Shown here: one piece after another, positions 5,005 to 25,402 of the stretch
Numbering within the stretch: the stretch's first letter is position 1
How the letters are laid out: every line of letters starts with the position of its first letter
From: Thiomonas delicata
GTDB taxonomy: Bacteria; Pseudomonadota; Gammaproteobacteria; Burkholderiales; Burkholderiaceae_C
DNA: 64,000 nt
Reading direction: 5' to 3'
Assembly (NCBI RefSeq): GCF_900088825.1
Contig: NZ_LT592170.1
Location: 1,426,523-1,490,522 of the forward strand
Made by a program: the position numbers and the translations under genes
Notes under the pieces: generated by a model
Database searches by the model: none
Told to the model about the DNA's origin: nothing
What the model saw: only the letters and a program-made list of their open reading frames with translations

Positions 5005-6279
5005 ATGCAAGCACGAACGAAGACACGCCCAAACGCAACACGCGATGCCGGGCCAGTCGCCACAGGTTCACCCTCGCCCGCAACAGGTGGCGCCACCTCC
5101 GGCATCACCGTGAGCACGCGAAACGGCGTAACGGCTGTAACGCGTAACGGCGTAACCAACGAGGCCAAACTCGGCGACACGCCGGTTACAGCGTTACACG
5201 GTTACGACGACCAACGCCCGCTCGCACCCTCTCGCGGTCTGACCACCAGGGCATCGAGCCTCCATCTGCGTGACGCCATTTTCGAACGGTCCCTTCGGCT
5301 CGCAAACAGATTTAGGGTCATCCGCACCATCGACGTCGCCGCCGCTTGCTTTCCCGAGCGCCCATTCAAAGCTTCCCTGACAGCAGCCCAACGGGCGGTC
5401 CGCGGCATGGTCAAGCGTGGCCTTCTGCGTCGTTACAGGACCGACCGATTCCAGACGGTCTACGGACTCACGCAGCCCGGCGTAGATTGGCTCGGCGACC
5501 ATGGCCACGACGCCGCATCTTCAGTGCGAAGGGTCAGCGATATGACCAATCCCGAACACCGATTGTGGGCCCAATTTCTTGTGGTTTGCAGCTGGGCGCG
5601 AGGCCTCCGTGCGGTCACAGAATCCGAGCTCCTGCATGACCTCAATGCCAATGCCAAAGCTGGCACGCGCAATGGGAGCAGCAAGGCCGTCCAAGGTTAC
5701 ATCACCGTGAGCGTCCATCGCCGCGGCGCCTCTGTCCGCAAGCACCTGCGCCCAGATGCCGTCGCGTTCGATGTGGAGGGGCGAGGCGTCACCTGGTTCG
5801 AGGTTGACCGCAGCAAGCGTGGCTCAGACCGCGCGGCCGACTTGGCTGCTCTGGTCGGAGCAATTGGCAACAAAACGGCCGACGGTCGCGTTCTCCGCCG
5901 CGTTGTCGTCATGTGCAAAACCGAGCGCATTGAGCGGGATGCCCTGCGCATCGTCGAGCAGCTCGCGGCTGCTTGCAATCAGCTCGTGCTGACCGAAGGG
6001 CGTAGGCACATCCGGCGGCAGAGTGATGGCGTCTATGAAGTGATGGCGGCAATCCCGGTCAAGCGTCAGGACGGTCGAACCGCGCTGATAGACGAGCAAG
6101 TTGGGCATGTCATCGTGCAGATGCTGCCAATCTGGCTGCCGAAGGTGCGGATTGACGCGAGCAATCGATGGAGCACCGATGGTTGGTTCAGCGACAACTG
6201 CCTCCCGTACAGGCGGCCAGGAAACCTCAGCCTATGGCCGATGCCCGGGTCGCCGCTCGTCACGGTGGACGATGAGTGA
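5005..6279 (+). CDS. Winged-helix plus nuclease-like protein (replication-relaxation-like)
   Basis: Up to 424 residues. After a low-complexity N-terminus, a winged-helix-like segment (about 90-160) contains FPERPFK, QRAVRGMVKRGLLRRY and VYGLTQPGVDWL. A second domain (about 185-330) begins NPEHRLWAQFLV and carries RPDAVAF followed by TWFEVDRSKRGSDRAADLAAL. That D...ExD spacing resembles a PD-(D/E)XK-type core, as in replication-relaxation (Replic_Relax) proteins of mobile elements. Family assignment is inferred from this architecture only. The start is uncertain: ATG at 5005 would put the GTAAC repeat cluster (5128-5205) inside the coding sequence, and GTG at 5110 is an in-frame alternative. 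It lies directly upstream of an SSB-like gene and the element's helicase. Confidence 0.6.
   Translation: MQARTKTRPNATRDAGPVATGSPSPATGGATSGITVSTRNGVTAVTRNGVTNEAKLGDTPVTALHGYDDQRPLAPSRGLTTRASSLHLRDAIFERSLRLANRFRVIRTIDVAAACFPERPFKASLTAAQRAVRGMVKRGLLRRYRTDRFQTVYGLTQPGVDWLGDHGHDAASSVRRVSDMTNPEHRLWAQFLVVCSWARGLRAVTESELLHDLNANAKAGTRNGSSKAVQGYITVSVHRRGASVRKHLRPDAVAFDVEGRGVTWFEVDRSKRGSDRAADLAALVGAIGNKTADGRVLRRVVVMCKTERIERDALRIVEQLAAACNQLVLTEGRRHIRRQSDGVYEVMAAIPVKRQDGRTALIDEQVGHVIVQMLPIWLPKVRIDASNRWSTDGWFSDNCLPYRRPGNLSLWPMPGSPLVTVDDE
5128..5205. repeat. Iteron-like cluster: four GTAAC then three GTTAC
   Basis: GTAAC begins at 5128, 5137, 5144 and 5152. The inverse GTTAC begins at 5185, 5193 and 5201 with an exact 8-bp period. 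The two groups face each other across about 28 bp. The same motif at the same period recurs at 10229-10257, 19397-19482 and 25222-25234. The arrangement looks like binding sites for a protein encoded by the element or the host. Confidence 0.55.
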
Positions 6280-6335
6280 CCCGTCGCTACACGAAGGGAT
6301 GGCGCCATGCCATCTCCATTCGAATAGGACAAAAC

Positions 6336-6665
6336 ATGCAAGTTTTTGGAAACGTCGCGACCGCGCCGGAGCGAAAGGTCAGCAAATCCACTGGGCGGGG
6401 ACATTTTGAGTTTCGCTTGGCAGAGAGCCAGCGCGGTGTCGATACCGAACCGACCTGGTACACGGTGCGCGTGATGAAGGACCACAACCCCAAGCTCGAC
6501 AAGGGCGCGTTTGTCAAAGTCACTGGAAAGCTGAAAACCGACTTCTACCTTTCACGCGAAGGCAAACCGACCGGCACCCTGTTGATTCTGGCATTCGAGG
6601 CGACCAAGCTGGCCAAACCCGCCGCGCAGGCCACCGAGCCTGCGCGGCAAGAACAAGAAGACTGA
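6336..6665 (+). CDS. SSB-like OB-fold single-stranded DNA-binding protein
   Basis: A 109-residue protein opening with MQVFGNVATAPE, followed by FEFRLAES, a TWYTVRVMKD strand and FVKVTGKLKTDFYLSREGKPTGTLLILA. This alternation is the OB-fold pattern of short SSB-like proteins found on integrative elements. The C-terminus is acidic and polar (ARQEQED), as in SSB tails, but lacks a clear DDIPF peptide. I chose ATG 6336 because AGGAC sits about 5 bases upstream and the fold starts there; a GTG at 6276 that overlaps the previous stop would add 20 unrelated residues. It is likely co-transcribed with the preceding gene. A terminator follows at 6688. It probably protects single-stranded DNA during element replication or transfer. 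Confidence 0.7.
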   Translation: MQVFGNVATAPERKVSKSTGRGHFEFRLAESQRGVDTEPTWYTVRVMKDHNPKLDKGAFVKVTGKLKTDFYLSREGKPTGTLLILAFEATKLAKPAAQATEPARQEQED

Positions 6666-6687
6666 CTGGTCTTCGTTGATTCCAGCG

Positions 6688-6711
6688 CCCCCGACACCGG
6701 GGGCTTTTTTC
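6688..6711 (+). terminator. Rho-independent terminator after the SSB-like gene
   Basis: GCCCCC pairs with GGGGGC (six pairs, 6-nt loop) and is followed by six T. It closes the transcription unit that starts near 5005. Confidence 0.85.
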
Positions 6712-6916
6712 TTGGTTTTATGGAAAAACCTTCCACGGCTGACCCTCCATAGCTCCCATCGCCGGCTTGGCGCGTGTCGAAGACCTGCCGATGACTGCAG
6801 GTGGATAAATGCACTGCCTAGACGTGCCAGCTGATGCCAAAAACAGGCGTCAGTCGGCGTGAGAGTCCGCAGTCGGTCGGCGTCTCTGCCCATAAACGAC
6901 CGGCTGGAGTTTCACC

Positions 6917-7132
6917 ATGGAAGCACAAAAATTGCTCGACCTGGACGAGCTCGCGCAGATGCTGCGACGCAGCCCCGAGACCATCAAAAAAGACCTTCGC
7001 CGCAACCCAGACGCCGTGCCGCCGCGATTGATGCTGCCGCATACGCGCCTGCTGCGGTGGCGCGCTGTGGATGTCGATGCCTGGCTTGGGCAATACGTGC
7101 AGCCGGCCATGCCTCGCGGGAGGCTGCAATGA
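6917..7132 (+). CDS. AlpA-like helix-turn-helix regulator/excisionase
   Basis: A 71-residue protein with an N-terminal helix-turn-helix: LLDLDELAQMLRRSPETIKKDLRR, then LPHTRLLRWRAVDVDAWLGQYV. The recognition helix followed by a wing ending in W..xDVDxWL is typical of AlpA/MerR-like proteins (HTH_17 type) of mobile elements, which act as transcriptional activators or excisionases. Its TGA stop overlaps the ATG of the downstream helicase (ATGA), so the two form an operon. Its target is not known; the AlpA proteins of P4-like satellites control the integrase promoter. Confidence 0.75.
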   Translation: MEAQKLLDLDELAQMLRRSPETIKKDLRRNPDAVPPRLMLPHTRLLRWRAVDVDAWLGQYVQPAMPRGRLQ

Positions 7133-8409
7133 CGCGCCGCGCATTCCAGCCCCATCTCTACGCCAGCCACGCCGTCGCGACCGGTGGCATCGCCTCGGAC
7201 TCCAACCTTCTCTATCAGTGGACGGGCACTCACTGGTCCCCTATCGATGAAGAAGCGGCTGAACGCGATGCGTACGCGTGGCTCGTCGCGCAAGACCCTG
7301 CTTGGGCGAGTGCCGAGAACGCCCGTAAGGCAGTTCGTGCTGCGAGTCTTTTTTCCCCACGCCTGCCCAAGCTCACGGATGCGGTCGTCGTGCCGACCCA
7401 GTCCGGCTACGTGCATCTTGACGGAGCAGAGCTCGTTCTAAAGCCCGCCGACCCGAGCCTGGGGCTGACGCATTGTCTCGATTGCCCTTATGCGCCTGAG
7501 GGCGTGATGCCAGCCCACTTCGCAGCCTTTGTCCAAAGGGTATTGCCGGACCCCAGCGTACGGGCACGCGTGCAGGAGTACATCGGCTACACACTTCTTG
7601 CGGATGCGCGTTACCAGCGGGCACAGTTTTGGCTCGGCGAAGGCGCCAATGGCAAGGGGGTTCTCGCAAATGTGGTCCAAGCCCTCCACGGCCACATCGC
7701 GGCAATGGCGCTGGACCAGTTGGCCGGCTTTCATCTGTCGGTCCTCGTTGGTGCAAGCCTGGTCTATGTCGACGAGGTGCCTCGCAAACCGATTGACGAG
7801 CAGCGGCTCAAATCCATGATTGCCGGGGAGCGCATGCCCGTGGACCGCAAGTACCGCGAACCACTCAGCATCCATGTGCGCGGAAAGTGGCTTGTTCTCG
7901 GTAACCACCTCCCGGCCATATCCGACCACAGCAGCGGCTTTTGGCGGCGTTGGGACGTGGTGCCGTTTTCGGTCACGATTCCGGAGCGCGAGCGTGACCC
8001 GCTCCTCGCGCAGACCATCGTCCGCGAAGAACTGTCCGGCGTGCTGCGCTGGGCTCTCGATGGACTGGTGCGGCTACAAACCCGTGGAGGCTTTGACCCT
8101 GTCATGCCGGCGGCAATGCAGGCGATGCTGCAAGAAGCCAAAGCGGACACGAATTCCGTCGTGGCGTGGGTTGAAGACCTCGGCGTGAAACTACAGCTGG
8201 CGTGTGATGTCCCGAAGGAGCGTGTGTTCGAACACTATCGCAACTGGTGCGCGGTCAATGCCATGCACGAGGTGAGCGTCGTCCAATTCTGGAAGCGGGT
8301 GCGCGAGCATTTTCGGGAATTGACCGAGGCGCGCATACGGACGGGGCCTGGCCAGCGGCGGGTCTGCAATGTGAAGCTCTCGGCATCGACGACAGACCTG
8401 GATATCTGA
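7129..8409 (+). CDS. P4-type SF3 replicative helicase (primase C-terminal domain)
   Basis: A 426-residue protein. The C-terminal two thirds are a superfamily 3 helicase: Walker A GEGANGKG (about 167-174), Walker B LVYVDEV (about 207-213), and sensor VLGNHLPAI (about 256), followed by an RRWDVVPFSVTIPE arginine-finger segment. This is the phage/plasmid primase P4-family helicase domain. The N-terminal about 130 residues show no obvious AEP or TOPRIM primase motif, and the protein is far shorter than P4 alpha (777 residues), so priming may come from the host or another protein. It starts at ATG within the stop of the AlpA-like gene. A terminator and a palindrome cluster that may be the origin follow. 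Confidence 0.85.
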   Translation: MTRRAFQPHLYASHAVATGGIASDSNLLYQWTGTHWSPIDEEAAERDAYAWLVAQDPAWASAENARKAVRAASLFSPRLPKLTDAVVVPTQSGYVHLDGAELVLKPADPSLGLTHCLDCPYAPEGVMPAHFAAFVQRVLPDPSVRARVQEYIGYTLLADARYQRAQFWLGEGANGKGVLANVVQALHGHIAAMALDQLAGFHLSVLVGASLVYVDEVPRKPIDEQRLKSMIAGERMPVDRKYREPLSIHVRGKWLVLGNHLPAISDHSSGFWRRWDVVPFSVTIPERERDPLLAQTIVREELSGVLRWALDGLVRLQTRGGFDPVMPAAMQAMLQEAKADTNSVVAWVEDLGVKLQLACDVPKERVFEHYRNWCAVNAMHEVSVVQFWKRVREHFRELTEARIRTGPGQRRVCNVKLSASTTDLDI

Positions 8410-8434
8410 ACTGAAGGGCTGCATCAAGGGCGCG

Positions 8435-8466
8435 GGGCGCGAGTGCATTGGTCTCGCGCCCTTTTG
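8435..8466 (+). terminator. Rho-independent terminator after the SF3 helicase
   Basis: GGGCGCGAG (8435-8443) pairs with CTCGCGCCC (8453-8461) over a 9-nt loop, followed by TTTT. It lies 26 bases past the helicase stop. Confidence 0.8.
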
Positions 8467-8491
8467 CGTTGGCTCTGCCCGAGGAATGGCC

Positions 8492-8601
8492 GTGCCGAGT
8501 GTGCCAGGCGAAAATCCCAAAGACTTTGGGTTGTGTGACTCCTATTTCCTTTTTCCTTATCTTTCGCGAAAGTTTGGATTCTGACCCGTCACACTCGGCA
8601 C
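8492..8601. repeat. Nested palindrome cluster, candidate replication origin
   Basis: Outer arms GTGCCGAGTGTG (8492-8503) and CACACTCGGCAC (8590-8601) are perfect inverse complements. Inside lie CCCAAAG-A-CTTTGGG (8516-8530), GTGTGAC (8533-8539) with its partner GTCACAC (8588-8594), the 12-bp palindrome CTTTCGCGAAAG (8561-8572), and a T-rich pyrimidine tract (about 8541-8562). The cluster is intergenic and immediately downstream of the element's replicative helicase. An origin or regulatory region is an inference. Confidence 0.5.
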
Positions 8602-9055
8602 AGAAGCAGCATTCATCCATCAAAACAATCACCTACAACATGCGCCGGGTGCGCCTTTGACCCGGCAACAGCCAGCACAGCCAAGGCAGCCACTTGGCGC
8701 ATGACCCTGGCCCGAGTCGGGGCCAGGCAGGGCGACCACCACGAACCGCCGGTGGCAGGCCTCGAATACGCATGGGACAGGGGCAACCGGCTCTGCGTCC
8801 CACCGCCACACTGGCCGACCAGAGTTGGCCAGTGCATGAAGCAAGACAATCTATCCAGGAAGGAAAGGGTCCAGGGTCGACGCGGCTCTCCAAGGATGCG
8901 TTCCGGCGCGGTGGGTCTGGCAAACCAAGCTGAAGGACGCATGCGCGCCCGCAACGTCCCGCTGGTGGCTGGGTGCTTGCGCTGTGATTTCGACTTCTGT
9001 CGATGACGCTTGACTTGCTGACGCCTGAATCAGTCCATGAGAGATGCCACCCATG
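8602..9055. other. Gene-free stretch downstream of the palindrome cluster
   Basis: The only ORFs are short, overlapping shadows. Several local hairpins are visible, such as TGGCCC with GGGCCA near 8709-8726. I see no convincing gene. It may belong to the origin region or the promoter of the next gene. Confidence 0.35.
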
Positions 9056-9084
9056 TTTCAGTAAACTATTTGAAATTACTGAAA
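9056..9084. promoter_or_regulatory. Operator-like inverted repeat before the nucleotidyltransferase gene
   Basis: TTTCAGTAA (9056-9064) and TTACTGAAA (9076-9084) are perfect inverse complements separated by an 11-bp AT-rich spacer. The repeat ends 13 bases before the ATG at 9098, where a repressor would block transcription or initiation. The binding protein is not identified. Confidence 0.6.
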
Positions 9085-9097
9085 TTCGCGCAACGCC

Positions 9098-10159
9098 ATG
9101 CATGCCTTTGCCCTGTACCGGGTGCACGAACAGGCCTACAGCACGCTGTTTGCCAGTCTGGCTCAATCGGCTGCCACGCAGGAGCAGGTTCTCTTGGGCG
9201 CGCCCGGCACCATCATCGAGCACAAACGGGGCGCACACGTCTATTTCGCGCGGCAGTTCATGAGTCCGGAAGGCAAGCGGTGCGAAGAAACCCTAGGGGG
9301 CACCGCCAGGGACCCTGACGTGCTGCAGCGTGTACAAACCATGCGCCAACGCATGGAGCGCAGCCACGGCCTCATCGCGCGCATTCGCGAGCTTGGGCGG
9401 CTGGGCTTTCAACTCGCCGACAACAAAACGTGCGCCACGGTTGGTGTCTTGTACAACCATGGTCTGTTTGCCGCCGGTGCTGTTCTCGTGGGCTCACATG
9501 CCTATGCCGTGCTGCTGAACATGCTGGGCATTCAGGCCGTGGCGTACCGCACCGAAGACGTCGACATCGCTCGCGGGCACCCCTTGGCCTTGGCCGGCGT
9601 ACCCGACGATGGCCTCTTGGGCATGTTGCGACAGACTGGTATTGCGTTTGTGGAGGTTCCCGGCCTGCATCCGGCTGAACCCGCAACATCGTTCACCCAA
9701 ATCGGTCCCTCTCGCTTCCATGTGGACCTGTTGGTCCCGGCCAGAACGCAGGACATTGCCATCGTCCCGGTACCCGAGTTGCGCGCGCATGCCACGGCGC
9801 TGCCCTATCTGGGCTACCTGCTTGAAAACACCCAGATGAGCGTGCTGCTGGCCCGGCACGGCGCAGTTCCGGTCCGCATTCCTGACGCCGCACGCTTTGC
9901 CCTGCATAAGCTGGTTGTCGGGCGGCTGCGTCCTGCTGCGATGCACGCCAAGGCCAGCAAGGACCTCCAGCAAGCGGCCACCTTGTTGGCCATGCTTGCC
10001 GAGCAGCGCCCGGGGGACATCGAGGACGCCTGCCAGGCCTTGCCAAGTGCCGCGCGCGCGAAGGCTCGAGGTGCCTTGTCTTTTGTGAAGAGCCTTTTGC
10101 AAAACGCGCACCCTGCGGCCATTGAGGCGTTGCAAGCTGGCCTGAGTGCCAAGGCCTGA
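9098..10159 (+). CDS. Nucleotidyltransferase-fold protein (GSU2403-like)
   Basis: A 353-residue protein. It opens HAFALYRVHEQAYSTLFASLAQSA. A central region has GVLYNHGLFAAGAVLVGSHAYAVLLNMLG, then RTEDVDIARG and FHVDLLVPAR. The GSxAY...DxDIA...D pattern is that of the nucleotidyltransferase superfamily (NTP_transf_8 / GSU2403-like). The C-terminal half (HKLVVGRLR, KASKDLQQAATLLAML) is helical, as in that family and in AbiEii-type toxins. The real substrate is unknown. No Shine-Dalgarno is obvious at ATG 9098, and a perfect operator-like inverted repeat lies just upstream. A toxin, defence or nucleotide-signalling role is an inference from fold and island context; no partner antitoxin gene is adjacent. 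Confidence 0.7.
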   Translation: MHAFALYRVHEQAYSTLFASLAQSAATQEQVLLGAPGTIIEHKRGAHVYFARQFMSPEGKRCEETLGGTARDPDVLQRVQTMRQRMERSHGLIARIRELGRLGFQLADNKTCATVGVLYNHGLFAAGAVLVGSHAYAVLLNMLGIQAVAYRTEDVDIARGHPLALAGVPDDGLLGMLRQTGIAFVEVPGLHPAEPATSFTQIGPSRFHVDLLVPARTQDIAIVPVPELRAHATALPYLGYLLENTQMSVLLARHGAVPVRIPDAARFALHKLVVGRLRPAAMHAKASKDLQQAATLLAMLAEQRPGDIEDACQALPSAARAKARGALSFVKSLLQNAHPAAIEALQAGLSAKA

Positions 10160-10465
10160 GACCTTGTGGCGACGATTTTGCAGGCTTCGGGGCCGGCGAT
10201 TTCAATCGTGGAAGCGCATGGCTTTGTCGTTACGTCGTTACGCGGTTACAGCGTGACGCCGCCGCATCAACATCGGCTCGCGCTTTGCCCGGGGCCGCCC
10301 ATTGCATCTCCAATCCGACGACGCCTCTGACCTCCGCATATTGCCGAATCGCGGACTTCTTCCGTCCCCCCGCCACTTTCGCCGCTAAGCTAGCCACACG
10401 AAGGTGGCGGCAAAGCAAGGCAAAGCCGCCAGCCGCACCAAGCGCGGCTCAACCAGGGGGAGCTG
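10160..10465. other. Intergenic stretch holding GTTAC repeats
   Basis: There is no convincing gene. The stretch contains the GTTAC array at 10229-10257, and presumably the promoter of the following PH-domain gene. Confidence 0.4.
10229..10257. repeat. Four tandem 8-bp GTTAC-type repeats
   Basis: GTTAC begins at 10229, 10237 and 10245, and the one-mismatch copy GTGAC at 10253, giving an exact 8-bp period. The segment GGTTACAGCGT is shared with the array at 5184-5194. The site is intergenic. Confidence 0.6.
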
Positions 10466-10912
10466 ATGAGCTACATCGACCGCAATCTGCTGACCAACGA
10501 GCAAATCCTGCACCGCGGCTACCTCAGCCGCATCGTGTTCGTCTCACCGTCCCTGCTTCTCCTCCTCGGGCTCGCCGTCCTCGCGCTCGACGGTGATGTC
10601 GCGGTCATTGGCGTCATCCTCCTGCTCGCAGGCGTGGCTGGTTTGCTCGGCGCCTTCATTCGTTACAAGACGTCCGAATTCGCAGTCACGAACAAGCGCG
10701 TCATCATGAAGGTAGGGCTCATCCGCAGGACCTCTGTGGAGATTGTGCTCAGCAAAATTGAGAGCATCACCGTCGACCAGGGGATTGCCGGGCGAATTTT
10801 CAACTTCGGCTCGATTGCTGTGGTCGGAACCGGCGGAACCCACGACCCGTTCCATCGCATCGCCGCGCCGCTGCAGTTTCGGCGGGCGGTGCAAGAGCAG
10901 TTGGCGGGGTAG
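10466..10912 (+). CDS. PH-domain (bPH2/YdbS-like) membrane protein
   Basis: A 148-residue protein with a GGGGAG ribosome site. It begins with a short hydrophilic segment (LTNEQILHRGYLS), then two transmembrane helices at about 26-42 and 46-64. The soluble domain starts with YKTSEFAVTNKRVIMKVGLIRRTSVEIVLSKIESITVDQGIAGRIFNFGSIAVVGTGG, which is the bacterial PH-like (DUF304) signature. The TNKRVIMKxG and KIExxxVxQ motifs are clear. Such proteins sit in the inner membrane; their ligand is usually unknown. It lies alone between gene-free stretches, so context gives no further hint. It may be cargo or remnant host sequence. Confidence 0.75.
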   Translation: MSYIDRNLLTNEQILHRGYLSRIVFVSPSLLLLLGLAVLALDGDVAVIGVILLLAGVAGLLGAFIRYKTSEFAVTNKRVIMKVGLIRRTSVEIVLSKIESITVDQGIAGRIFNFGSIAVVGTGGTHDPFHRIAAPLQFRRAVQEQLAG

Positions 10913-11143: not shown

Positions 11144-12037
11144 TCAGGCACGTTTGCCCGCGTCTTCAGCGCTGACCATCTCGATGGCTGTCCAGTCGAG
11201 TTGCCCGCGCCCCTTGGCGAGACTGGTCAGCAGGCGGGCATGGAGCAAGTCGGCCAAGGGCATCGGCACCGTGGCGCTCTCGGCCGCATCGCGGACCAGG
11301 CGCACATCCTTCATGCCCAGCTCCAGCTTGAATCCCGCCGGCTCGTAAGTCTGGGCTGCCAGGATGCGGCCGTAGTTCTGATAGATGGGGCAGTTGAATA
11401 TCGTCTGTCCCAGGAAACCGGCCAGGGCCTGCCGGTCGATTCCGCTCTTCTCGGCCAAGGTGAGCGCCTCGGCCATCGCCTCCACGGCGGACAGAATCAG
11501 AAAATTGCCCGACAGCTTCACGACATTGGCAGCGCCCGGCTCCTCACCAAAGTCGTGAATGGCCTGGCCCATGGCCTCGAGCAGTGGCTTGGCACGTGCC
11601 TTGGCCTCGGCCGTGCCGGACTGGCAAATCCACAGCTTCTGCGCAGCGGCCGCTTCTGGGCGACCGAAGACAGGTGCGCTGAGCCACAGGCTGCCCCGCT
11701 TGGCATGCTCGGCAGCCAGATGGCGGGACGTTTCCGGCGAGACGGTGCTCATCGAGATATGCAGACCGCCAGCGCCCAGCCGGTCGGCAACACCCGAGCC
11801 GCCAAGGGTGACGTCCAGCAGTGCAGCGTCGTTGGCCAGCATGGTGATGACCACGCCGCCAGGGGTCACCGCCGCTGCGACCGAGTCGGCCACCTTGGCG
11901 CCTGCCGCGGCCAGCGGCGCGGCGCGCTCGCGGGAGCGGTTGTAGACCGTCAGCGCGACGCCGCTGCGCAGCACGCTCGAGGCCATGGGTTCCCCCATGG
12001 CGCCCAGACCGATGAAAGTGACCGATGAGTCTTGCAT
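11144..12037 (-). CDS. NAD(P)-dependent 3-hydroxyisobutyrate dehydrogenase-family oxidoreductase
   Basis: A 297-residue protein with ATG at 12037, preceded by AAGGAA. The N-terminus VTFIGLGAMGEPMASSVLRSG is the GxGxMG dinucleotide-binding motif, followed by VYNRS (an Arg after strand 2 suggests NADP(H)). It has the family segment SMSTVSPETSRHLAAEH, the G..GAANVVKLSGNFL helix with the expected catalytic-type lysine, and GMKDVRLVRDAAES near the end. The substrate is not predictable within the beta-hydroxyacid dehydrogenase family, which includes glyoxylate/succinic semialdehyde reductases. It is an isolated metabolic gene among mobile-element genes, transcribed against its neighbours, and is probably cargo. 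Confidence 0.85.
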   Translation of the reverse strand: MQDSSVTFIGLGAMGEPMASSVLRSGVALTVYNRSRERAAPLAAAGAKVADSVAAAVTPGGVVITMLANDAALLDVTLGGSGVADRLGAGGLHISMSTVSPETSRHLAAEHAKRGSLWLSAPVFGRPEAAAAQKLWICQSGTAEAKARAKPLLEAMGQAIHDFGEEPGAANVVKLSGNFLILSAVEAMAEALTLAEKSGIDRQALAGFLGQTIFNCPIYQNYGRILAAQTYEPAGFKLELGMKDVRLVRDAAESATVPMPLADLLHARLLTSLAKGRGQLDWTAIEMVSAEDAGKRA

Positions 12038-15270: not shown

Positions 15271-16314
15271 ATGGCACTTTGGCTCGTTCGCGCTGGCAAG
15301 TATGGGGAACATGAAACTCGGTTTCTCGATGACAACCGCATCTATCTGACTTGGGATGCATTTACGGAGACCGACCTATCGGTCGCGAAGGACTACGAAG
15401 GCGTCAAGGCCCTCATGTCACAGCGTTATCCAAGCGAGCCATCGCGCCGCTTGGGAAACTGGTCAGGGCAAGTGTGGGCCTTTCTCCTCGCCATGAAGGT
15501 CGGAGATTGGGTGGTAGTGCCAAGTAAGACGTCACCCACGATTGCGATTGGGGAAGTCGTCGGGCCATATGCGTTCGACCCCAAAGCGGAGCCGATGTAC
15601 CGTCACTCCCGTGCCATCAAATGGCTAAACAAGGCCGTCCTTCGCAGTGCATTTGGCCAAGACCTTCTGTATTCGATGGGTGCATTCCTGACGGTCTGCG
15701 AAATCAAGCGCAACGACGCGGAGGCGCGCGTACGCAAAATGGCGGCCAATGGATGGCGGGATGTGTTCGTGAATACGACGGCATCCGTTCCAAGCAACGG
15801 GGGTGCCGAAAGTCAGGCTGACGCGGTAGACGTGGACCTCGAAGAGCTTGCGCGCGATGCCATTGGCAAACTCATCATCCAGAGATTTAAGGGCCATGGG
15901 ATGGCGAGGCTTGTCGAAGCCATCCTAAAAGCCCAAGGTTTTGCCACGTACCTCAGCCCCGAGGGGCCAGACAAGGGAATCGACATCCTGGCAGCCGGTG
16001 GCGCTTTCGGATTCGAGCGTCCCCGCATCTGCGTGCAAGTCAAATCGGGCGACACGCCGGCGGACCGACCCGAGTTCACCCAACTTATTGGGGCAATGCA
16101 GAGTGTGAAGGCCGAGCAGGGTCTCTTTGTCTCGTGGGCGGGGTTCAAGCCGACTGTGCTTAAGGAAGTCCCGACCCATTTCTTCTCGGTGCGTGTCTGG
16201 AACGAGAAGGACCTCGTTGAGCAGGTACTGGCGAATTACGACAAACTTGACCAGGATGTCCGTGCAGAACTTCCACTCAAGCGAGTCTGGATGATTGCCT
16301 CTTCGGAGGAGTGA
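15271..16314 (+). CDS. Mrr-like restriction endonuclease within the type I locus
   Basis: A 347-residue protein. The N-terminal about 150 residues (MALWLVRAGKYGEHETRFLDDNRIYLTW...VGDWVVVPSKTSPTIAIGEVVGPYAF) form a small beta domain resembling N-terminal reader domains of modification-dependent enzymes. The C-terminal part has FKGHGMARLVEAILKAQGF, then PDKGIDILAAGG and ICVQVKSG at about 253-260. That E..GxD...QxK arrangement is the catalytic core of Mrr-type endonucleases. It starts 18 bases after hsdS and ends 42 bases before hsdR, so it belongs to the same operon. A nuclease targeting modified or foreign DNA is inferred; it could complement the type I enzyme against phages that evade it by base modification. 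Confidence 0.85.
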   Translation: MALWLVRAGKYGEHETRFLDDNRIYLTWDAFTETDLSVAKDYEGVKALMSQRYPSEPSRRLGNWSGQVWAFLLAMKVGDWVVVPSKTSPTIAIGEVVGPYAFDPKAEPMYRHSRAIKWLNKAVLRSAFGQDLLYSMGAFLTVCEIKRNDAEARVRKMAANGWRDVFVNTTASVPSNGGAESQADAVDVDLEELARDAIGKLIIQRFKGHGMARLVEAILKAQGFATYLSPEGPDKGIDILAAGGAFGFERPRICVQVKSGDTPADRPEFTQLIGAMQSVKAEQGLFVSWAGFKPTVLKEVPTHFFSVRVWNEKDLVEQVLANYDKLDQDVRAELPLKRVWMIASSEE

Positions 16315-16356: not shown

Positions 16357-19300
16357 ATGACGAGCGCAGTCCTTGAAGACCACCTCGAACAAGCCACGCT
16401 TCAGTGGCTCTCCGCGCTCGGCTGGCAAACCGCGCATGGCCCTGACATCTCACCGCCCGACGCCAGGACCGCTGGCACCGAGCGCGACACCTACCGCCAG
16501 GTCTGCCTACCCCATCGCCTTGCGGCCACGATTCAGCGCCTGAATCCCAACATCCCGACGAGCGCACGGGACGCGGCTCTGCGCCTAGTCCTCAACCCCA
16601 ACACCCCCGGCCTCGTCGCCGCCAACCGCCAGTTCCACCGCTGGCTGGTCGAAGGTGTCCCGGTCGAGTACCAGAGGGACGGCGAAACCCGCGGCGACCG
16701 CGTCCGGCTCATCGACTTCAGCGACGTTGGCCGAAACGACTGGCTGGCCGTCAACCAGTTCACCGTGCAAGGCCCCAAGCACACCCGCCGCCCCGACCTC
16801 GTGCTGTTCCTCAACGGCCTGCCCCTGGTGGTGCTGGAACTCAAGAACCCCGGCGACGAGAACGCCGACATCTGGGGCGCCTTCAACCAGCTCCAGGCCT
16901 ACAAAGACGACATTCCCGACCTGTTCATCGACAACGAGCTGCTGGTCATCACCGACGGCATCTCCGCCCGCATGGGCTCGCTCACCGCCGACCGGGAACG
17001 CTTCATGGCCTGGCGCACCATCGACGGCCACACCACCGACCCGCTCGGGTCCATGCGCGAACTGGAAACCCTGGTCCAAGGTGCCTTCGACCGCCAGACC
17101 CTGCTCGACTATCTGCAGCACTTCATCCTGTTCGAGGACGATGGGGGGCTGGTCAAGAAGGTCGCCGGCTACCACCAGTTCCATGCCGTGCGCGCCGTGG
17201 TCGACAGCGTGCTCAAGGCCAGCGCCCCTGGCGGCTCGCGCAAGGGCGGGGTGGTGTGGCACACCCAGGGGGCTGGCAAGAGCATCGAGATGACCTGCCT
17301 GGCCGGCATGCTCATCGGGCACCCGGAGCTCCAGAACCCCACGGTCTTGATGGTCACCGACCGCAACGACCTGGACAACCAACTGTTCGGCGTGTTCGCC
17401 GGCGCCACCGAGCTGCTGCACGAAACCCCGGTGCAGGCCGCCACCCGCCCCAAGCTGCGCGAGCTGCTGGGCAACCGCCCCAGCGGCGGCATCGTCTTCA
17501 CCACCATCCAGAAGTTCGCACCTGGCGAGGACGAAGACAGCTTCCCGGTGCTGTCCGAGCGCAGCAACATCATCGTCATCTGCGACGAAGCCCACCGCAG
17601 CCAGTACGGCTTTGCCGCCAAGCTGCCCGGACAGGACGATGCCACCCGTCGCTACCGCCAGACCGCGGCCGCGCCGCTGAGCGCGCAGGATGCCGGCGCG
17701 ATTGGGGCCACCACGGCCTTGGTCACAGCGGCCCCGGCCTCCAGCGTGCGCTACGGCTACGCCCAGTACCTGCGCGACGCGTTGCCCAACGCCACCTTCG
17801 TCGCCTTCACCGGCACCCCCGTGTCGCTGGAGGACCGCGACACCCGCGCCGTGTTCGGCGACTACGTCCACATCTACGACGTCGAGCAGGCGGTCAAGGA
17901 CGGCGCCACGGTGCCCATCTATTACGAGTCGCGCCTGGCGAAGCTCGAACTCGCGGAGGAGGACACCACCTGGCTTGATGATGACGTCGACCAATTGACC
18001 GAGGACGATGAGGACGACGCCAGCAAGACCAGCAAGCTGCGCCGCTGGGCCGCGCTGGAAAAACTCGTTGGCGCACCGCCCCGGATTCAGAAGGTGGCCG
18101 CCGACATCGTCGAACACTTCGAAAACCGCCTTGCCGCCCTGGACGGTAAGGCCATGGTCGTCGGCATGAGCCGCGAGATTTGCGTCCATCTCTACGACGC
18201 TCTCGTCGCCCTGCGGCCGGAATGGCACGACCCCGACCCCGACAAAGGCGCCATCAAAATCATCATGACCGGCTCGGCCTCGGACAAGCCGATGCTCAAG
18301 CCGCACATCTACACCAAAGAGGTCAAGAAGCGCCTGGAGCGGCGCTACAAGGACCCTGCCGACCCGTTCAAGCTGGTCATCGTGCGCGACATGTGGCTGA
18401 CCGGCTTCGATGCGCCCTGTCTGCACACGATGTATATCGACAAGCCCATGCGTGGCCACAACCTGATGCAGGCCATCGCCCGGGTCAACCGGGTGTTCAA
18501 GGACAAGCCCGGCGGTCTGGTCGTCGACTACATCGGCATTGCCAACGAGCTCAAGGCCGCCCTGAAGGACTACACCCTGGCCCACGGCAAGGGGCGGCCG
18601 ACCATCGACACCCACGAGGCCCTGCGCTTGCTGCTGGAGAAGATGGAGGTGCTCCACGGCATCCTGCACGGCTGCGACTACGCGGACTTCCGCACCCAAG
18701 CCTGGCAACTGCTGCCCAAGGTGGCCAACCATATCCTGGGCCAGGATGACGGCAAGAAGCGCTTCGCCGACGCCGTCCTGTCCGCCACCAAGGCGTTCGC
18801 GCTGTGCTGCACGCTTGACGAGGCTCTTGAACACCGGGACGAACTGGCCTTCCTGCAGGCCACCAAGGCTGCCCTGACCAAGCACACCACACAGGACAAG
18901 AAGCTCAGCGACGAGCAGAAAGAACACGCGCTGCGGCAGATTCTGAGCAAGGCCGTGGTCAGCGCCGAGGTCGTCGACATCTTCCAGGCGGCCGGGTTGA
19001 ACAAACCGGATATCGGCATTCTGTCCGAGGAGTTCCTCGACGACGTGCGGCACATGAAGGAGCGCAATCTGGCGGTGGAGCTGCTGGAGCGCCTGCTCAA
19101 GGATGACATCAAGACCCGATTCAAGACCAATGTGGTCAAGGCGGCCAAGTACAGCGAATTGCTTCAGGAAAGCCTCAAGCGCTACCGCAACCGCGCCATC
19201 GAGACGGCCCAGGTCATCGAGGAACTGATTGCGATGGCCAAGCAGTTCCAGCAGGAGGCCATCAGGGGCGCCGCGCTGGGGCTGAGTCCCGAGGAGCGGG

Positions 19301-19566
19301 CGTTCTACGACGCGCTGGCCGCCAATGAGTCGGCGGTCAGAGAACTGGGCGACGAGACGCTGAAGAAGATTGCGGTCGAGCTGACGCTGAAACTGCGTAA
19401 CTCTGTAACCGTCGATTGGTCCGTGCGCGACGCGGTGCGGGCAAGCATTCGGGTGATGGTCAAGACGCTGTTACGGCGTTACAAGTATCCGCCGGACAAG
19501 CAGGAGGAGGCAACCGAGACGGTGCTCAAGCAGGCGGAGATGCTGTCGGCGGAATGGGTAGGGTGA
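16357..19566 (+). CDS. hsdR: Type I restriction endonuclease subunit HsdR
   Basis: A 1069-residue protein, the usual length. The N-terminal nuclease domain has [23 protein letters not shown], whose D...ExK residues form the PD-(D/E)XK site (about 144-163). The SF2 translocase follows: [11 protein letters not shown] Walker A (about 305), [26 protein letters not shown] box (about 409), FTGTPV motif III, and [34 protein letters not shown] for motifs V-VI. The C-terminus is helical, as in HsdM-docking regions. It needs HsdM and HsdS to cut DNA, after ATP-driven translocation. The ribosome site before ATG 16357 is weak. Two 8-bp-spaced GTAAC/GTTAC pairs lie in its 3' end. Confidence 0.95.
19397..19482. 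repeat. GTAAC pair and inverted GTTAC pair inside hsdR
   Basis: GTAAC begins at 19397 and 19405, GTTAC at 19470 and 19478. Each pair has the same 8-bp period seen in the intergenic arrays, and the pairs face each other as at 5128-5205. They lie in coding sequence, so coincidence cannot be excluded. Confidence 0.4.
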
Positions 19567-20164: not shown

Positions 20165-20208
20165 TGCTTACTCCGAGTTCAGTGGGTAGGTTGCGTAAGC
20201 CATCTGAC

Positions 20209-21761: not shown

Positions 21762-21773
21762 TAAAGTAGACGT
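21738..21773. promoter_or_regulatory. Inverted-repeat operator, probably for the WYL regulator
   Basis: ACGTCTATTTT (21738-21748) and the inverse of 21763-21773 (ACGTCTACTTT) match at 10 of 11 bases. The left arm overlaps the -10 region of the leftward promoter and the right arm abuts its -35. The pair sits just upstream of the WYL gene start at 21790, so one dimeric repressor could control both directions. BrxR and CapW bind inverted repeats in comparable positions. Confidence 0.65.
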
Positions 21774-21789
21774 GTGGCACAATGCGCCT

Positions 21790-22695
21790 ATGGCAAACAC
21801 GCAACACCACACATCCACGCCGTCGGCGCTCGACCCTGCCGGTCATTGGGGCCAAGGCCGCCGGCTCGAATTCATTGACTTTCGCCTGCGCTGGGAGGGG
21901 CGCTTGAACCGGTCTGACGTGATGGAGTTCTTCAGCATCTCCACACCGCGGGCTTCCATGGACATCGGGCGGTACCTGGAGCTGGCACCCGGCAATGCCT
22001 TCTACGACCGCAGCTCACGCAGCTACTTGGCAGCCAAGGAGTTCAAGCCGCTTTTTCCCGACAACAACCCCGAGCGCTATCTCAACGAGTTGCTGGCACG
22101 TGAGGCTGGCGTCGTGCCCAAGGGCCTCAGCTTCATCGGTTGGGTCCCGCCACTGGCCGTGATGCCGCGACCTGGACGCGTCGCACGGGCTGATGTCTTT
22201 CTCCAGGTCTTGGATGCCATCCGCGGTCACAAGGCATTGACGGTGGTGTATCAATCAATGAGCACTCCGCGGCCACAGGAGCGCGTCATTGCTCCGCACG
22301 CGCTTGCCCATGACGGGATGCGCTGGCACGTCCGTGCCTATTGCGCCCAGCGGGAGAAGTACCTCGACTTCCAGTTGGGGCGCTTTCTCGAGGTGGCTCC
22401 AAGCCAACGCCCTGGTACGGATGGGGCTGACGACGCTGCTTGGCATCGCATGGTTCCGCTGGTTCTGGCCCCGCATCCTGAACTGAGCCCCGAGCAGCAA
22501 CACGCGATTGCCCTGGACTACGGGATGGTGGACGGCTGTACTACCTTGCAGTGCCGCCAATCGATGCTCTTCTACACGCTTCGCTCTCTGCGCTTGCTCA
22601 AAGAGGGAGTCGAGTCCCCGCAGGACCAGCAAATCACGCTGAGGAACCGCGCGGCGATTGCGGAGTTCCTCCCCAAGGACGCTGCTAAGAGCTGA
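21790..22695 (+). CDS. WYL-domain transcriptional regulator (BrxR/CapW-like)
   Basis: A 301-residue protein. The N-terminus has a winged helix (LEFIDFRLRWEGRLNRSDVMEFFSISTPRASMDIGRYLELAP) and a dimer linker to about 120. The WYL domain covers about 135-210 (ALTVVYQSMSTPRPQERVIAPHALAHDGMRWHVRAYCAQREKYLDFQLGRFLEV), with the RWHVRAYC core and R/Y ligand-type residues. A C-terminal helical extension (SPEQQHAIALDYGM...YTLRSLRLL) follows. This matches repressors that guard BREX, CBASS and other defence islands and are released by a nucleic-acid-like ligand. I chose ATG 21790 over 21751 because the latter lies inside the operator. The gene diverges from an operon of unknown genes, its likely target. 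Confidence 0.88.
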   Translation: MANTQHHTSTPSALDPAGHWGQGRRLEFIDFRLRWEGRLNRSDVMEFFSISTPRASMDIGRYLELAPGNAFYDRSSRSYLAAKEFKPLFPDNNPERYLNELLAREAGVVPKGLSFIGWVPPLAVMPRPGRVARADVFLQVLDAIRGHKALTVVYQSMSTPRPQERVIAPHALAHDGMRWHVRAYCAQREKYLDFQLGRFLEVAPSQRPGTDGADDAAWHRMVPLVLAPHPELSPEQQHAIALDYGMVDGCTTLQCRQSMLFYTLRSLRLLKEGVESPQDQQITLRNRAAIAEFLPKDAAKS

Positions 22696-23051
22696 CGGAA
22701 CACGGCGCTGCTCGAGGCCGCTTAAGGAGCATTCGCAGTGGGCAAGACCCTGGGCGCATTCGTTGCAAGAGCACGCGTCGAGCTCGCAATGACCGATGCC
22801 GCAGGCAAATGGTTGCCAGCACACACGCGGGCTGCAGGAACTCCCGCGCAGGTCTACACGCGGGGCCCCAGTACTCCGCCCGCTCCAGCATCATGCGCTG
22901 AACCCTCGGCGCGCTGCGGCTTGGCACGGTTGTGCGGCACTTCTTGCGCCTGACGGTTCCTGTATCACAGTTCGCCCGCGTCATATGGGCCCCTGGTCGC
23001 TGTGATAATTCGCCACTTGTCTCCTACGACGACGTGCCGGAGGCTTAGCTC
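22696..23051. other. Gene-free stretch
   Basis: Only short ORFs that overlap on both strands are present, with no recognisable product. The right end carries GGAGG at about 23039-23043 ahead of a 25-codon ORF. Confidence 0.35.
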
Positions 23052-23129
23052 ATGACCCTGCGGGCCAGGAGTTTGAAACTCGCCAAGGCAGCCGGAACGG
23101 CTTTGCACGCATTGATAGCGAACCGATGA
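23052..23129 (+). CDS. Possible 25-residue upstream peptide
   Basis: ATG 23052 follows GGAGG by about 8 bases. The basic, amphipathic peptide (MTLRARSLKLAKAAGTALHA...) ends in a TGA that overlaps the ATG of the next gene (ATGA). It could serve as a translational coupler or be the remnant of a larger gene. Evidence is limited to the ribosome site and the overlap. Confidence 0.35.
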   Translation: MTLRARSLKLAKAAGTALHALIANR

Positions 23130-23425
23130 CCGACGAATCCCAACTCACCATCCCGCCGTCCTTCATCGCCCTTTACGTGGAGCCAGGCCGCACCAAGCCC
23201 CATGCGCCGCGCGACGTCATCACCCAGCGCTACGAGTTCTGCGAAGACCTGGCGACGATGCTGACCGACCGCGCATCGGAAATCAAGTTCGACCTGGGGG
23301 TGACCGAGTCGGATGTTCTTGAACGCATCCACCGCGGCTTGGAGGTCGAAGGCTCTGGCCTTGATGCCAAGGAGGCGCGGTGGGTGGTGACGCGCCTGGC
23401 GGAGTTGCTGGGGTGGACGGCGTAG
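23126..23425 (+). CDS. Conserved small protein of Burkholderiales, function unknown
   Basis: A 99-residue protein (MTDESQLTIPPSFIALYVEPGRTKPHAPRDVITQRYEFCEDLATMLTD...). The RYEFCEDLA segment, the (T/S)E.DVLER.HRGLE motif and the ending EARWVVTRLAELLGW are typical of a small family, often annotated without evidence as ATPase with chaperone activity. It has no Walker motif, so that label is not supported. No signal peptide or membrane segment is seen. It starts within the stop of a 25-codon ORF. It may be host rather than element sequence, since this family is usually chromosomal. Confidence 0.7.
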   Translation: MTDESQLTIPPSFIALYVEPGRTKPHAPRDVITQRYEFCEDLATMLTDRASEIKFDLGVTESDVLERIHRGLEVEGSGLDAKEARWVVTRLAELLGWTA

Positions 23426-23489
23426 GATGTTTGAGAAGGATACGTACGCCTGATGTGCCGATTGGCTTGCGTTCCAGACACCGCATATT

Positions 23490-25046
23490 TCACACCTGGA
23501 ACGACGGCGGCCTCAGTTCGGTCGGCCGGCCCTTGCCTTCCAGAAAATACCCAATCTCGACCATGGCCCAGGTGTCCTGTTCGCAGTAGGCCAGCAGGTT
23601 GCGACGTAACTCCGCCTTGCGCCTGGGCGTCAGCTCGGCGTCGAAGCAGGACTGCAGGTAGGCAACCTGCGCGCCGGTGCCGTCCTGCACCTCGTCCAGT
23701 TCTCCATAGTTCAGGTCGGGGGCGATGACCGGCAGCACCTTCTTGATGGAGAACGACCCCTTCATCGCCGGATGGTAGAAATGCTCCTTGACCACGGGGT
23801 GCAGGTCGACCAATCGCGCGGCCAGTCGCTTCAGCCGGTCCGCAAAGGCCGGATGGCGTTTGGCCAGCTCGACGATGCGACCTCGTTCATACGTGGCGTA
23901 ATACACCAGGATGGGGCCACCGTCCCCCACGTCGATGGCGTGCAGCATCTCCTCGATGCAGGGCTCGGAGGGGTCATGCCCGCTGAGGTCCAGGAAGGCG
24001 CGGTGCTCGAACACGCCGGGCGCCCGCTCGATATGGCAAGACCACTGGAACGGCACCTGCTCGTAAGGTCGCAAGCCGACCCACCGCGGCACCGGCAGGT
24101 CAATGCCTTCGAAGTCGAAGTAGTAGCGGGGATACGTCAGCCTTTGCATGAAGGTGTTGGCGCCAGGGGCGAGGATAGGGCGCCCGGTGCGGTGGGCCTG
24201 CTGGATGCGGCGGTACAACGCCGCCTGTGCACCGACCAGCTCACCGGGACGCGGCTCCAGCAAAGACGTATAGCCCTTGGCGGCGAGCTTGCGCGCCAAG
24301 GCCTTCCCAGCCGTATCGGGGAGCAAACTCAGCGGATGTTCGGGGCCGGGCGGCTCCAGCCTTTGGCACAGCGCCGCGTAAGGGCAGGGGTGGGGATGGG
24401 TGCATTGATTGCCCATGCGGACGTCGGGCATGTCGCCGTCAACCACATCCCGAGCCTGCCGCAGCCATTGTGGAACAGCACGCATGCGCTGTTGCACCGC
24501 ATCGGTGACGTCCAGTTGGCGAAACAAGCCGCGGTAGTCGCCGGCGCCTGGATAGCGCCATTGGTTGTCCAGCAGATTGAGCTCGGCGCGCGCCAGCGGC
24601 AGGCCGGCGCCTTCCAGCACCCAGGCCTGCACGGCGACATCATCCAAATGATGCTCGTCCGGCGAACTCGGGGTGGCCTTGTCCGGCTTCAGCGGAAACG
24701 TGGAGGCCTTGGTCTCGCGCAGGACATAGCCCGCCGCCTCCGGCAGCAAGGCATCGGCGCGGGCATACAAGCCGTCGCGCACCATGGGCATTTCGACGGC
24801 GGGCAGCATGGCGGCGGCGGTCAGTTCGGCCAACGCGGTCGCAGCATCGCTTGCCGGGTCTCCGGAGGTGTTCGGCCAGAGGTACTCCCCGACATCCCGA
24901 CGCGCATACTCGCCGACGAGACGGCCGTCGAGGGTGCGGCGGTCGACGGGGACGGACGCAGAAGTTTGCGGCTCGGGCGGATGGTGATGCAGCCACAGCA
25001 TCCGCGGGCATTGGCGCCAGGCCATCAGGTCGGATTTGGTCAGCAC
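23490..25046 (-). CDS. DUF2779 protein, Cas4-like nuclease plus exonuclease-like domain
   Basis: A 518-residue protein starting at GTG with AGGGGGAG upstream. The N-terminal domain resembles Cas4/RecB-type PD-(D/E)XK proteins: TKSDLMAWRQCPRMLWL, an ADALL...YVLRETKAST block (acidic residues and ExK), and a cysteine group CTHPHPCPYAALC at about 216-228 that could hold an Fe-S cluster with Cys14. The C-terminal DUF2779 domain starts YYFDFEGIDLPVPRWVGLRPYEQVPFQWSCHIE and continues YYATYERGRIVELAKRHP, HPVVKEHFYHPAMKGSFSIKKVLP and AYCEQDTWAMVEI. Its D/E...H...D pattern is reminiscent of a DnaQ-like exonuclease. The target is unknown. Position next to the integrase, in an island full of restriction genes, points to DNA processing or defence. 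Confidence 0.8.
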   Translation of the reverse strand: MLTKSDLMAWRQCPRMLWLHHHPPEPQTSASVPVDRRTLDGRLVGEYARRDVGEYLWPNTSGDPASDAATALAELTAAAMLPAVEMPMVRDGLYARADALLPEAAGYVLRETKASTFPLKPDKATPSSPDEHHLDDVAVQAWVLEGAGLPLARAELNLLDNQWRYPGAGDYRGLFRQLDVTDAVQQRMRAVPQWLRQARDVVDGDMPDVRMGNQCTHPHPCPYAALCQRLEPPGPEHPLSLLPDTAGKALARKLAAKGYTSLLEPRPGELVGAQAALYRRIQQAHRTGRPILAPGANTFMQRLTYPRYYFDFEGIDLPVPRWVGLRPYEQVPFQWSCHIERAPGVFEHRAFLDLSGHDPSEPCIEEMLHAIDVGDGGPILVYYATYERGRIVELAKRHPAFADRLKRLAARLVDLHPVVKEHFYHPAMKGSFSIKKVLPVIAPDLNYGELDEVQDGTGAQVAYLQSCFDAELTPRRKAELRRNLLAYCEQDTWAMVEIGYFLEGKGRPTELRPPSFQV

Positions 25047-25402
25047 CGAAGCTCCCCCTTGTCAATCCGTGTCGGGCGGAACGGCGTGTTCCGGTCAACA
25101 GCATTGTGCCGAGCTGGAGCCTTGCGTCGCAAGCAGCGCCAGGGCTTGTTGTGTCGGAGGGACATCGGCGGTTCTGCAGGGCGCGTGCGTTCCCATAAAA
25201 AAGAGGCGCGTTTGGTGCAGCGTTACGTCGTTACGGGGCACCGCATCACAACGCGATTCAAGACCACCGCCGCGCTTTACGGAAGCGCGCCCGCAAGCGC
25301 GGCCAAACAAATCCCGCCAAAGCGTGAATTTTTCACGCGCCGCTATCTGGGTTTTGGTAAGCGGTGGCTTTTCGCTGCTGAGCTGTTCCTCGAGCGCATC
25401 TC
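25047..25402. other. Intergenic stretch between the DUF2779 gene and the integrase
   Basis: There is no convincing gene. It contains GTTAC pairs at 25222-25234 and presumably the DUF2779 promoter. Confidence 0.4.
25222..25234. repeat. GTTAC pair with 8-bp period
   Basis: GTTAC begins at 25222 and 25230 in the context CGTTACGTCGTTACG. That 15-mer is also present at 10228-10242 in the other intergenic array. Confidence 0.55.

What the first reader, a model, noticed from the sequence alone, without database searches (positions are those of the whole stretch)
5128..25234. GTTAC repeats at exact 8-bp period recur across the island
The motif occurs as GTAAC at 5128, 5137, 5144, 5152; GTTAC at 5185, 5193, 5201; at 10229, 10237, 10245 (and GTGAC at 10253); GTAAC at 19397, 19405 with GTTAC at 19470, 19478; and GTTAC at 25222, 25230. 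CGTTACGTCGTTACG is shared by two intergenic arrays 15 kb apart. At 5128-5205 and 19397-19482 the groups face each other. I noticed no comparable 8-bp-spaced pairs in the chromosomal half. This looks like iterons or dispersed sites of an element-encoded DNA-binding protein (replication, partition or silencing).
Basis: partly seen in the sequence, partly recalled or inferred. Interest (0 to 1): 0.7.

Follow-up and report, generated by a model that had tools for sequence, protein, structure and literature searches.

The report
Dispersed GTTAC site arrays of islands
A family of mobile islands in related bacteria carries short, regularly spaced DNA repeats scattered over the element, some inside protein genes where the DNA letters are preserved; they look like docking sites for an island-encoded protein that helps keep the island in the cell.

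Summary
The repeats are real, concentrated in islands and far above chance. The window holds most of a 38.4-kb tRNA-Pro island with four GTTAC array loci; a second island region in the genome has its own. Of 19 GTTAC-N3-GTTAC pairs in 3.84 Mb, 16 lie in these two regions and 2 in a copied island segment. Spacing is mostly 8 bp (7 and 9 occur); many arrays are two groups facing each other. Two lie inside genes (ORF5005, hsdR), where synonymous positions are conserved more in the repeats than elsewhere. Arrays follow ORF5005, a replication-relaxation relative: 13 of 17 elements have pairs within 45 kb of it (63 of 90 pairs in 14 genomes); 522 kb of fetched element DNA has 50 such pairs against 3, 0 and 3 for control motifs. 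They do not follow the SF3 helicase, absent from sister elements that carry RepA+RepC. Best reading: dispersed iteron- or centromere-like sites read by an element protein, most likely ORF5005; binder and role are inferred. The opposed format recurs in phages (81 viral stretches against 7-10 for controls), often beside replication genes. A new variant of a known kind.

The parts
5128..5156 (-). left arm of main opposed array: GTAAC at 5128, 5137, 5144, 5152, inside ORF5005
   Evidence: aligned in 7 loci
5185..5205 (+). right arm of main opposed array: GTTAC at 5185, 5193, 5201, inside ORF5005
5005..6279 (+). ORF5005, relative of replication-relaxation proteins; best candidate for the array-binding protein
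   Evidence: homologue in pPNAP03 annotated replication-relaxation and matching PF13814; residues 99-160 conserved more than the rest
6276..6665 (+). SSB-like protein, frequent neighbour of ORF5005
   Evidence: PF00436
6859..8409 (+). P4-family SF3 helicase with C-terminal RFX-like DNA-binding domain (start probably downstream of 6859)
   Evidence: PF19263, PF02257; TIGR01613; nearest solved structure 7ola
8492..8601 (.). 29-nt inverted repeat flanking an A+T-richer core, just 3' of the helicase: candidate helicase origin, distinct from the GTTAC arrays
10229..10257 (+). direct array GTTAC x3 plus GTGAC, between two ORFs
   Evidence: copy at C4:1266171
16357..19566 (+). hsdR cargo gene that carries an opposed pair of arrays
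19397..19409 (-). GTAAC pair in hsdR
19470..19482 (+). GTTAC pair in hsdR, 73 bp from the opposed pair
25222..25234 (+). GTTAC pair on the integrase side
   Evidence: homologous arrays in L065 and L011
25322..25338 (.). palindrome GCGTGAATTTTTCACGC beside the integrase-side array
25403..26986 (-). tyrosine integrase of the island
   Evidence: PF00589
27184..27260 (-). tRNA-Pro; 47 bp of its end are repeated at C4:1415263, the other end of the island

Best explanation
The arrays are element-wide binding sites: 5-bp units repeated at 8 bp (7-9), often in two groups facing each other, about 5-9 kb apart over part of an integrative element. An element-encoded helix-turn-helix-type protein, most likely the ORF5005 product, binds them cooperatively and ties the distant arrays into one nucleoprotein complex. 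That complex serves maintenance (replication control, cohesion or partition) of the excised or integrated element, as dispersed iterons or centromere sites do in some plasmids. Shown here: the arrays, their concentration in these elements, DNA-level conservation, and linkage to ORF5005. Inferred: the binder, its fold, the cooperativity and the maintenance role.
For: Concentration in the islands. In 7 ORF5005 sequences 26 of 27 array bases are invariant against 291 of 609 outside, and 5 of 6 synonymous third positions against 13 of 106; left-arm Val codons are always GTA and the right-arm Val codon (5185) always GTT. In 4 hsdR sequences 20 of 20 array bases against 2463 of 3073, and 7 of 7 synonymous thirds against 484 of 873; the 5 plasmid hsdR relatives that I aligned (of 31 records matched) lack the pairs. 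Integrase-side array plus palindrome recurs in three elements. In 14 genomes 63 of 90 pairs lie within 45 kb of ORF5005, and 13 of 17 elements have one. In 521,853 bases of fetched element DNA there are 50 GTTAC pairs at spacing 8 or 9 against 3, 0 and 3 for three control 5-mers. ORF5005 residues 99-160 stay 73-100% identical to the window in the array-bearing elements compared, the rest 48-94%. In relatives, spacing is 8 in 46, 9 in 22 and 7 in 6 pairs.
Against: No binding data. Four ORF5005 elements have no pair within 45 kb: G158 (an imperfect 7-bp array is there), G125 (core 82% conserved), G961 and G489. G961 and G489 are diverged over the whole protein, so their lack of pairs is weak support for the core as reader. 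Counted over whole genomes, GTTAC pairs are no more frequent than the reversed control in most relatives (for example G957 1 against 62, G968 19 against 39); only their location is special. Two of the three G904 elements have arrays at the window's exact offsets, so they are copies, not independent cases. ORF5005 is mostly linked to ssb, to HTH genes (i1563/i2408) and to RepA/RepC, so linkage does not name the binder. ORF5005 itself has no Pfam hit even at E 1, and AlphaFold2 models were poor. No ParA-type Walker motif was found.
Confidence: 0.5

Rival explanations
1. The arrays are replication-origin iterons of the island's P4-family SF3 helicase (6859-8409), whose RFX-like C-terminal domain reads GTTAC, as in SaPI/PICI origins.
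For: The helicase has an RFX_DNA_binding domain; 12 of 81 viral arrays lie within 300 bp of a D5-type helicase cluster; L240 has three GTTAC units at 9 bp about 460 bp upstream of a 58% identical helicase, without ORF5005.
Against: The second island and several sister elements have the arrays but no such helicase. Around four orthologues at 47-52% identity no GTTAC array at 8-9 bp was seen in about 40 kb each, and one has a GAGTC array instead. Island spacers are G+C-rich. A separate origin-like repeat follows the helicase gene.
Confidence: 0.12
2. The arrays are iterons of an IncQ-like RepA/RepC replicon, ancestral in this element family; the window island lost RepA/RepC and keeps the arrays as relics or uses RepC from the second island in trans.
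For: RepA (AAA_25) and RepC are in the second island and in many relatives; an array lies about 135 bp 3' of RepC in G908 and about 400 bp in G185.
Against: No RepA or RepC in the window island, in the G492 pieces or in the 50 kb of G116 by tblastn at 1e-4, yet all have arrays. The 8-9-bp period does not match the about 20-bp iterons that I recall for IncQ RepC. Arrays inside hsdR and ORF5005 are odd origins.
Confidence: 0.17
3. The arrays are operators of a transcriptional regulator encoded by the element (for example the HTH proteins i1563/i2408).
For: These HTH genes were found in most of the elements with arrays; G125 and G961, without pairs nearby, show neither in the 20 kb read.
Against: By position several arrays do not sit at gene starts: 123 bp into ORF5005, near the 3' end of hsdR, 3' of int (no promoter scan was run). 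The HTH region of i2408 falls to 42% identity while the 5-bp unit is unchanged.
Confidence: 0.13
4. The repeats are by-products of coding sequence or of shared descent, without function.
For: Some arrays lie inside genes and encode conserved residues; the hsdR sequences compared are close relatives.
Against: Synonymous sites are conserved more in the repeats than outside; arrays recur at different positions in different elements; control 5-mers are rare in the same DNA.
Confidence: 0.05

Closest known systems
Dispersed centromere-like iterons of Myxococcus plasmid pMF1 (ParB; PMC3235114, passages seen)
   Same: Several repeat sites scattered along the replicon, some inside ORFs, bound by one plasmid-encoded protein; unit similar to an 8-bp motif.
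   Different: Other motif (AGATGTCT-like), a ParA is present, an 18.6-kb plasmid; here no ParA motif seen and an integrative element.
pSM19035 parS / omega protein heptads (PMC9499535, passages seen)
   Same: Short contiguous units in direct and inverted orientation at several places of the replicon.
   Different: 7-bp WATCACW units at promoters, six sites of 7-10 units, ribbon-helix-helix ParB plus ParA (delta).
PICI/SaPI origins and SCCmec Cch2 iterons (PMC6092414, PMC7581432, passages seen)
   Same: Two sets of short iterons in PICIs, 5-nt units in SCCmec, read by a helicase; many viral GTTAC arrays found here fit this format.
   Different: One site 3' of rep, in PICIs flanking an A+T-rich stretch; the island arrays are multiple, some intragenic and G+C-rich.
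IncQ (RSF1010) RepA/RepC replicon (recalled; RepC by Pfam)
   Same: The sister island and relatives carry AAA_25 RepA and PF06504 RepC.
   Different: The window island lacks both; array period is 8-9 bp.

Membership tests
tRNA-targeted integrative element | tyrosine integrase next to a tRNA with a direct repeat of the tRNA end at the far end | tested here: met
   int 25403-26986, tRNA-Pro 27184-27260, 47-bp repeat at C4:1415263
PICI/SaPI-type origin | two iteron sets flank an A+T-rich stretch | tested here: not met
   16 island-family spacers are 57-81% G+C, 13 of 16 above their locus
PICI/SaPI-type origin | origin directly 3' of the rep/helicase gene | tested here: not met
   main array is 1.6 kb upstream of the helicase frame; another inverted repeat sits 3' of it
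ParABS partition with dispersed centromeres | several sites dispersed over the replicon | tested here: met
   four array loci in the window island
ParABS partition with dispersed centromeres | ParA-type ATPase | tested here: not met
   no deviant Walker A match in 11 element stretches by pattern; a pattern can miss one
ParABS partition with dispersed centromeres | centromere-binding protein binds the sites | not testable with these tools
   needs EMSA or ChIP
IncQ-like replicon | RepA and RepC encoded by the element | tested here: not met
   met in the second island, not found in the window island by tblastn
Replication-relaxation (PF13814) | profile match | tested here: inconclusive
   54% identical homologue matches at 6e-6; window ORF5005 does not match

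The most novel reading that the evidence does not exclude
A ParA-less, element-wide site system in which a replication-relaxation-type protein reads opposed GTTAC octads dispersed through the element, and in which cargo genes such as hsdR carry array sites in their own coding sequence by choice of synonymous codons, so that cargo DNA itself takes part in element maintenance.
Probability: 0.33. Interest if true: 0.75.

Novelty: new variant of a known kind. Interest (0 to 1): 0.56.

Why it matters
It gives a sequence signature that marks a family of integrative elements (pairs near ORF5005 in 10 of the 13 same-family genomes with a strong ORF5005 match) and a testable site for a protein family (replication-relaxation) whose DNA target I do not know of. 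If cargo genes are selected to hold maintenance sites, element evolution is more tightly knitted than modular exchange suggests. The use of the same opposed GTTAC format next to phage replication genes is a second lead.

Tried and rejected
Helicase-origin reading: my first idea (P4 alpha-like helicase with RFX domain reading GTTAC) was dropped as lead. Chance and coding artefact: rejected. Promoter operators: not favoured from positions; no promoter scan was run. A viral scan for relatives of the helicase gave 2 pattern stretches and none confirmed; one for ORF5005 gave 25 and none confirmed. ORF5005 was seen in 3 of 300 order genomes, in 1 of 369 class genomes, our own, and in 18 of 399 family genomes at E 0.001, 13 of them strong. 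The two-armed pattern itself matched only our own genome among 200 of the family. Structure prediction of ORF5005 failed (mean pLDDT 38). Its core gave one mostly helical model (75.6) and four at 46-49, so no fold search was made. Paper searches: GTTAC/GTAAC with the words motif, repeats or sequence found none; GTTAC with iterons and phage listed 14 papers, none relevant by title or abstract start; RFX domain with primase and phage found none. Passages of PMC4234260, PMC7145576 and PMC5016525 were also seen. Rows dropped: the five weak ORF5005 matches (E 8e-5 or weaker) and the G968 fragment were left out, and the MAG genomes G492-G495 were left out because the pattern itself had found them. 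L213-L215 were read on the wrong strand; these orthologues were then judged on DNA only. The AAA_25 profile was built from array loci and their kin, so its counts (16 of 81 viral, 13 of 98 genome, 2 of 25 control) lean towards them. Many viral and genome loci are short pieces, so absences there mean little.
Full report
Observation. The spacing is mostly 8 bp, but 5128-5137 is 9 and 5137-5144 is 7. The island has 8 pairs at spacing 8 and 34 motif occurrences in 38,491 bp; the chromosomal side of the window has no pair and 4 occurrences in 36,769 bp. 300 Markov simulations of the island gave no pair, and no other 5-mer has more than 3 such pairs.

The element. The island is bounded by tRNA-Pro at 27184-27260 and a 47-bp copy of its end at C4:1415263, 11.3 kb left of the window; it is 38.4 kb long. 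It carries an integrase, a type I restriction system with an Mrr-like gene, and SngA and SngC genes of the Shango defence system. A second island region lies at tRNA-Asn on contig C5, between copies of the tRNA end. A scan of the whole genome for GTTAC-N3-GTTAC gave 19 pairs against 3 for the reversed pattern. 16 are within 45 kb of the two ORF5005 copies, 2 are in a 94% identical copy of window 9038-10788 at C4:1266171, and 1 is elsewhere.

The arrays are conserved as DNA. In seven ORF5005 sequences the array lies about 120 bp into the gene, and the gaps after the start codon are multiples of three. Array bases are invariant in 26 of 27 compared positions against 291 of 609 outside; synonymous third positions in 5 of 6 against 13 of 106. 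The left-arm Val codons are GTA and the right-arm Val codon is GTT in all seven, which the protein does not require. In hsdR the opposed pairs are 73 bp apart in the window; the same offset occurs in G492, G493, G495 and three times in G904, in hsdR in the four cases that I read (G492, G493, G495 and one of G904). In four hsdR sequences 20 of 20 array bases and 7 of 7 synonymous thirds are invariant, against 2463 of 3073 and 484 of 873. Five plasmid hsdR relatives (of 31 records matched) lack the pairs. The three other hsdR proteins are 88-97% identical to the window's, so this second contrast is modest by itself.

A third site type recurs near the integrase: array plus palindrome GTGAATTTTTCAC in the window, in L065 (Burkholderiales MAG 22) and in L011. 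Further arrays lie roughly 1-2 kb 3' of an SbcC-like gene, near ssb, near RepC, and in or next to i3405 homologues. In G904, of another genus, arrays at two places have the window's exact offsets: copies of the same island, which shows that it moves.

Which protein reads them. I first suspected the SF3 helicase 6859-8409 because of its RFX-like C-terminal domain and its likeness to the primase chain 7ola. Against that, the second island has ORF5005 at 95% and ssb at 83%, but an AAA_25 helicase and an IncQ-type RepC in place of the SF3 helicase, and many relatives are alike. Four helicase orthologues at 47-52% show no GTTAC array at 8-9 bp in about 40 kb each, one carrying opposed GAGTC repeats instead. 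A 29-nt inverted repeat with an A+T-richer core lies directly 3' of the helicase; its outer part is conserved in G492. It is a better origin candidate. RepC does not fit everywhere either: tblastn finds no RepA or RepC in the window island, in the G492 pieces or in 50 kb of G116, yet all have arrays.

ORF5005 is the common partner. In 14 genomes chosen by ORF5005 match, 63 of 90 pairs lie within 45 kb of it, although these zones make up 1-7% of each genome; 13 of 17 elements have at least one pair there (pattern N3 for G000, N3/N4 for the others). The four without are G158, G125, G961 and G489. Counted over whole genomes the pairs are not more frequent than the reversed control in most of these relatives, so the point is where they lie: in 521,853 bases of fetched element DNA there are 50 GTTAC pairs against 3 CATTG, 0 GATTC and 3 ACTTG pairs. 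Two same-genus genomes without an ORF5005 match have no pairs. ORF5005 residues 99-160 are 73-100% identical to the window in the array-bearing elements compared, the remainder 48-94%. The core is 56% and 68% in G961 and G489, which lack pairs but are diverged throughout; G125 (82%) is an exception. The HTH protein i2408, also often linked, falls to 42% in its HTH region, and RepC to 42% against the second island's copy. This favours ORF5005 but does not prove it. The helix-turn-helix nature of its core is my reading of the sequence; a homologue matches PF13814 and structure prediction did not settle it.

What the arrays do. PICI origins have iteron sets flanking A+T-rich DNA (PMC6092414, passages). 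The viral arrays found here lean that way: the spacer is on median 9.3 points A+T-richer than its locus, with 37 of 81 richer by at least 10 points. The 16 island-family spacers measured are 57-81% G+C, 13 of them above their locus. Several short arrays, dispersed, some inside ORFs, resemble the centromere-like iterons of pMF1 (PMC3235114, passages) and the heptads of pSM19035 (PMC9499535, passages). No ParA-like Walker motif was found in 11 stretches. I therefore commit to element-wide maintenance sites read by ORF5005, at 0.5.

Phages. The opposed pattern GTAAC-N3-GTAAC-N20-50-GTTAC-N3-GTTAC occurs in 81 viral stretches, against 10, 7 and 8 for three control motifs, and in 98 stretches of the genome collection. 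51 of the 81 viral arrays lie within 300 bp of one of four gene clusters: 16 beside a cluster whose tested members are primase-helicase-like (Prim-Pol in two of four, AAA_25 in three of four), 12 beside D5-type helicases, 6 beside DUF3854 helicases, 17 beside terminase small subunits; 30 beside none of these (families). These may be phage origins or packaging sites. Whether they share a reader with the islands is unknown; convergence is possible.

Noticed in passing
viral loci L120-L200, e.g. L129:2416, L141:4909, L134:4654: Opposed GTTAC arrays recur in 81 viral stretches against 7-10 for control motifs, in many cases just 3' of primase-helicase genes, with spacers that tend to be A+T-rich: perhaps a widespread phage origin format.
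   Followed up: partly
L057, L058, L059, L069, L099 (Alistipes/Rikenellaceae contigs): Several opposed GTTAC arrays per contig; in some, two arrays flank an AAA_25 helicase gene.
   Followed up: partly
window 8492-8601: Inverted repeat GTGCCGAGTGTG...CACACTCGGCAC around an A+T-richer core just 3' of the SF3 helicase, partly conserved in G492: candidate origin.
   Followed up: partly
L242:16831-16940 and L246:2498-2564: Other opposed arrays in stretches with helicase relatives: GAGTC units near the helicase (L242) and GTGAA units about 13 kb from it (L246).
   Followed up: no
window 1065-3590 and L014:7453-9654: SngA and SngC of the Shango defence system on the island, besides type I restriction and Mrr-like genes.
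   Followed up: no
L011:6153-6577, 11407-11831; 11322-11405, 16109-16192: A 425-bp exact repeat holding tRNA-Asn and an 84-bp exact repeat: looks like a nested insertion into the homologue of ORF23772.
   Followed up: no
window 9038-10788 and L009:8981-10723: 94% identical copy of an island module (nucleotidyltransferase gene plus array) about 170 kb away, beside a 29-bp repeat shared with a duplicated 1.3-kb stretch.
   Followed up: no
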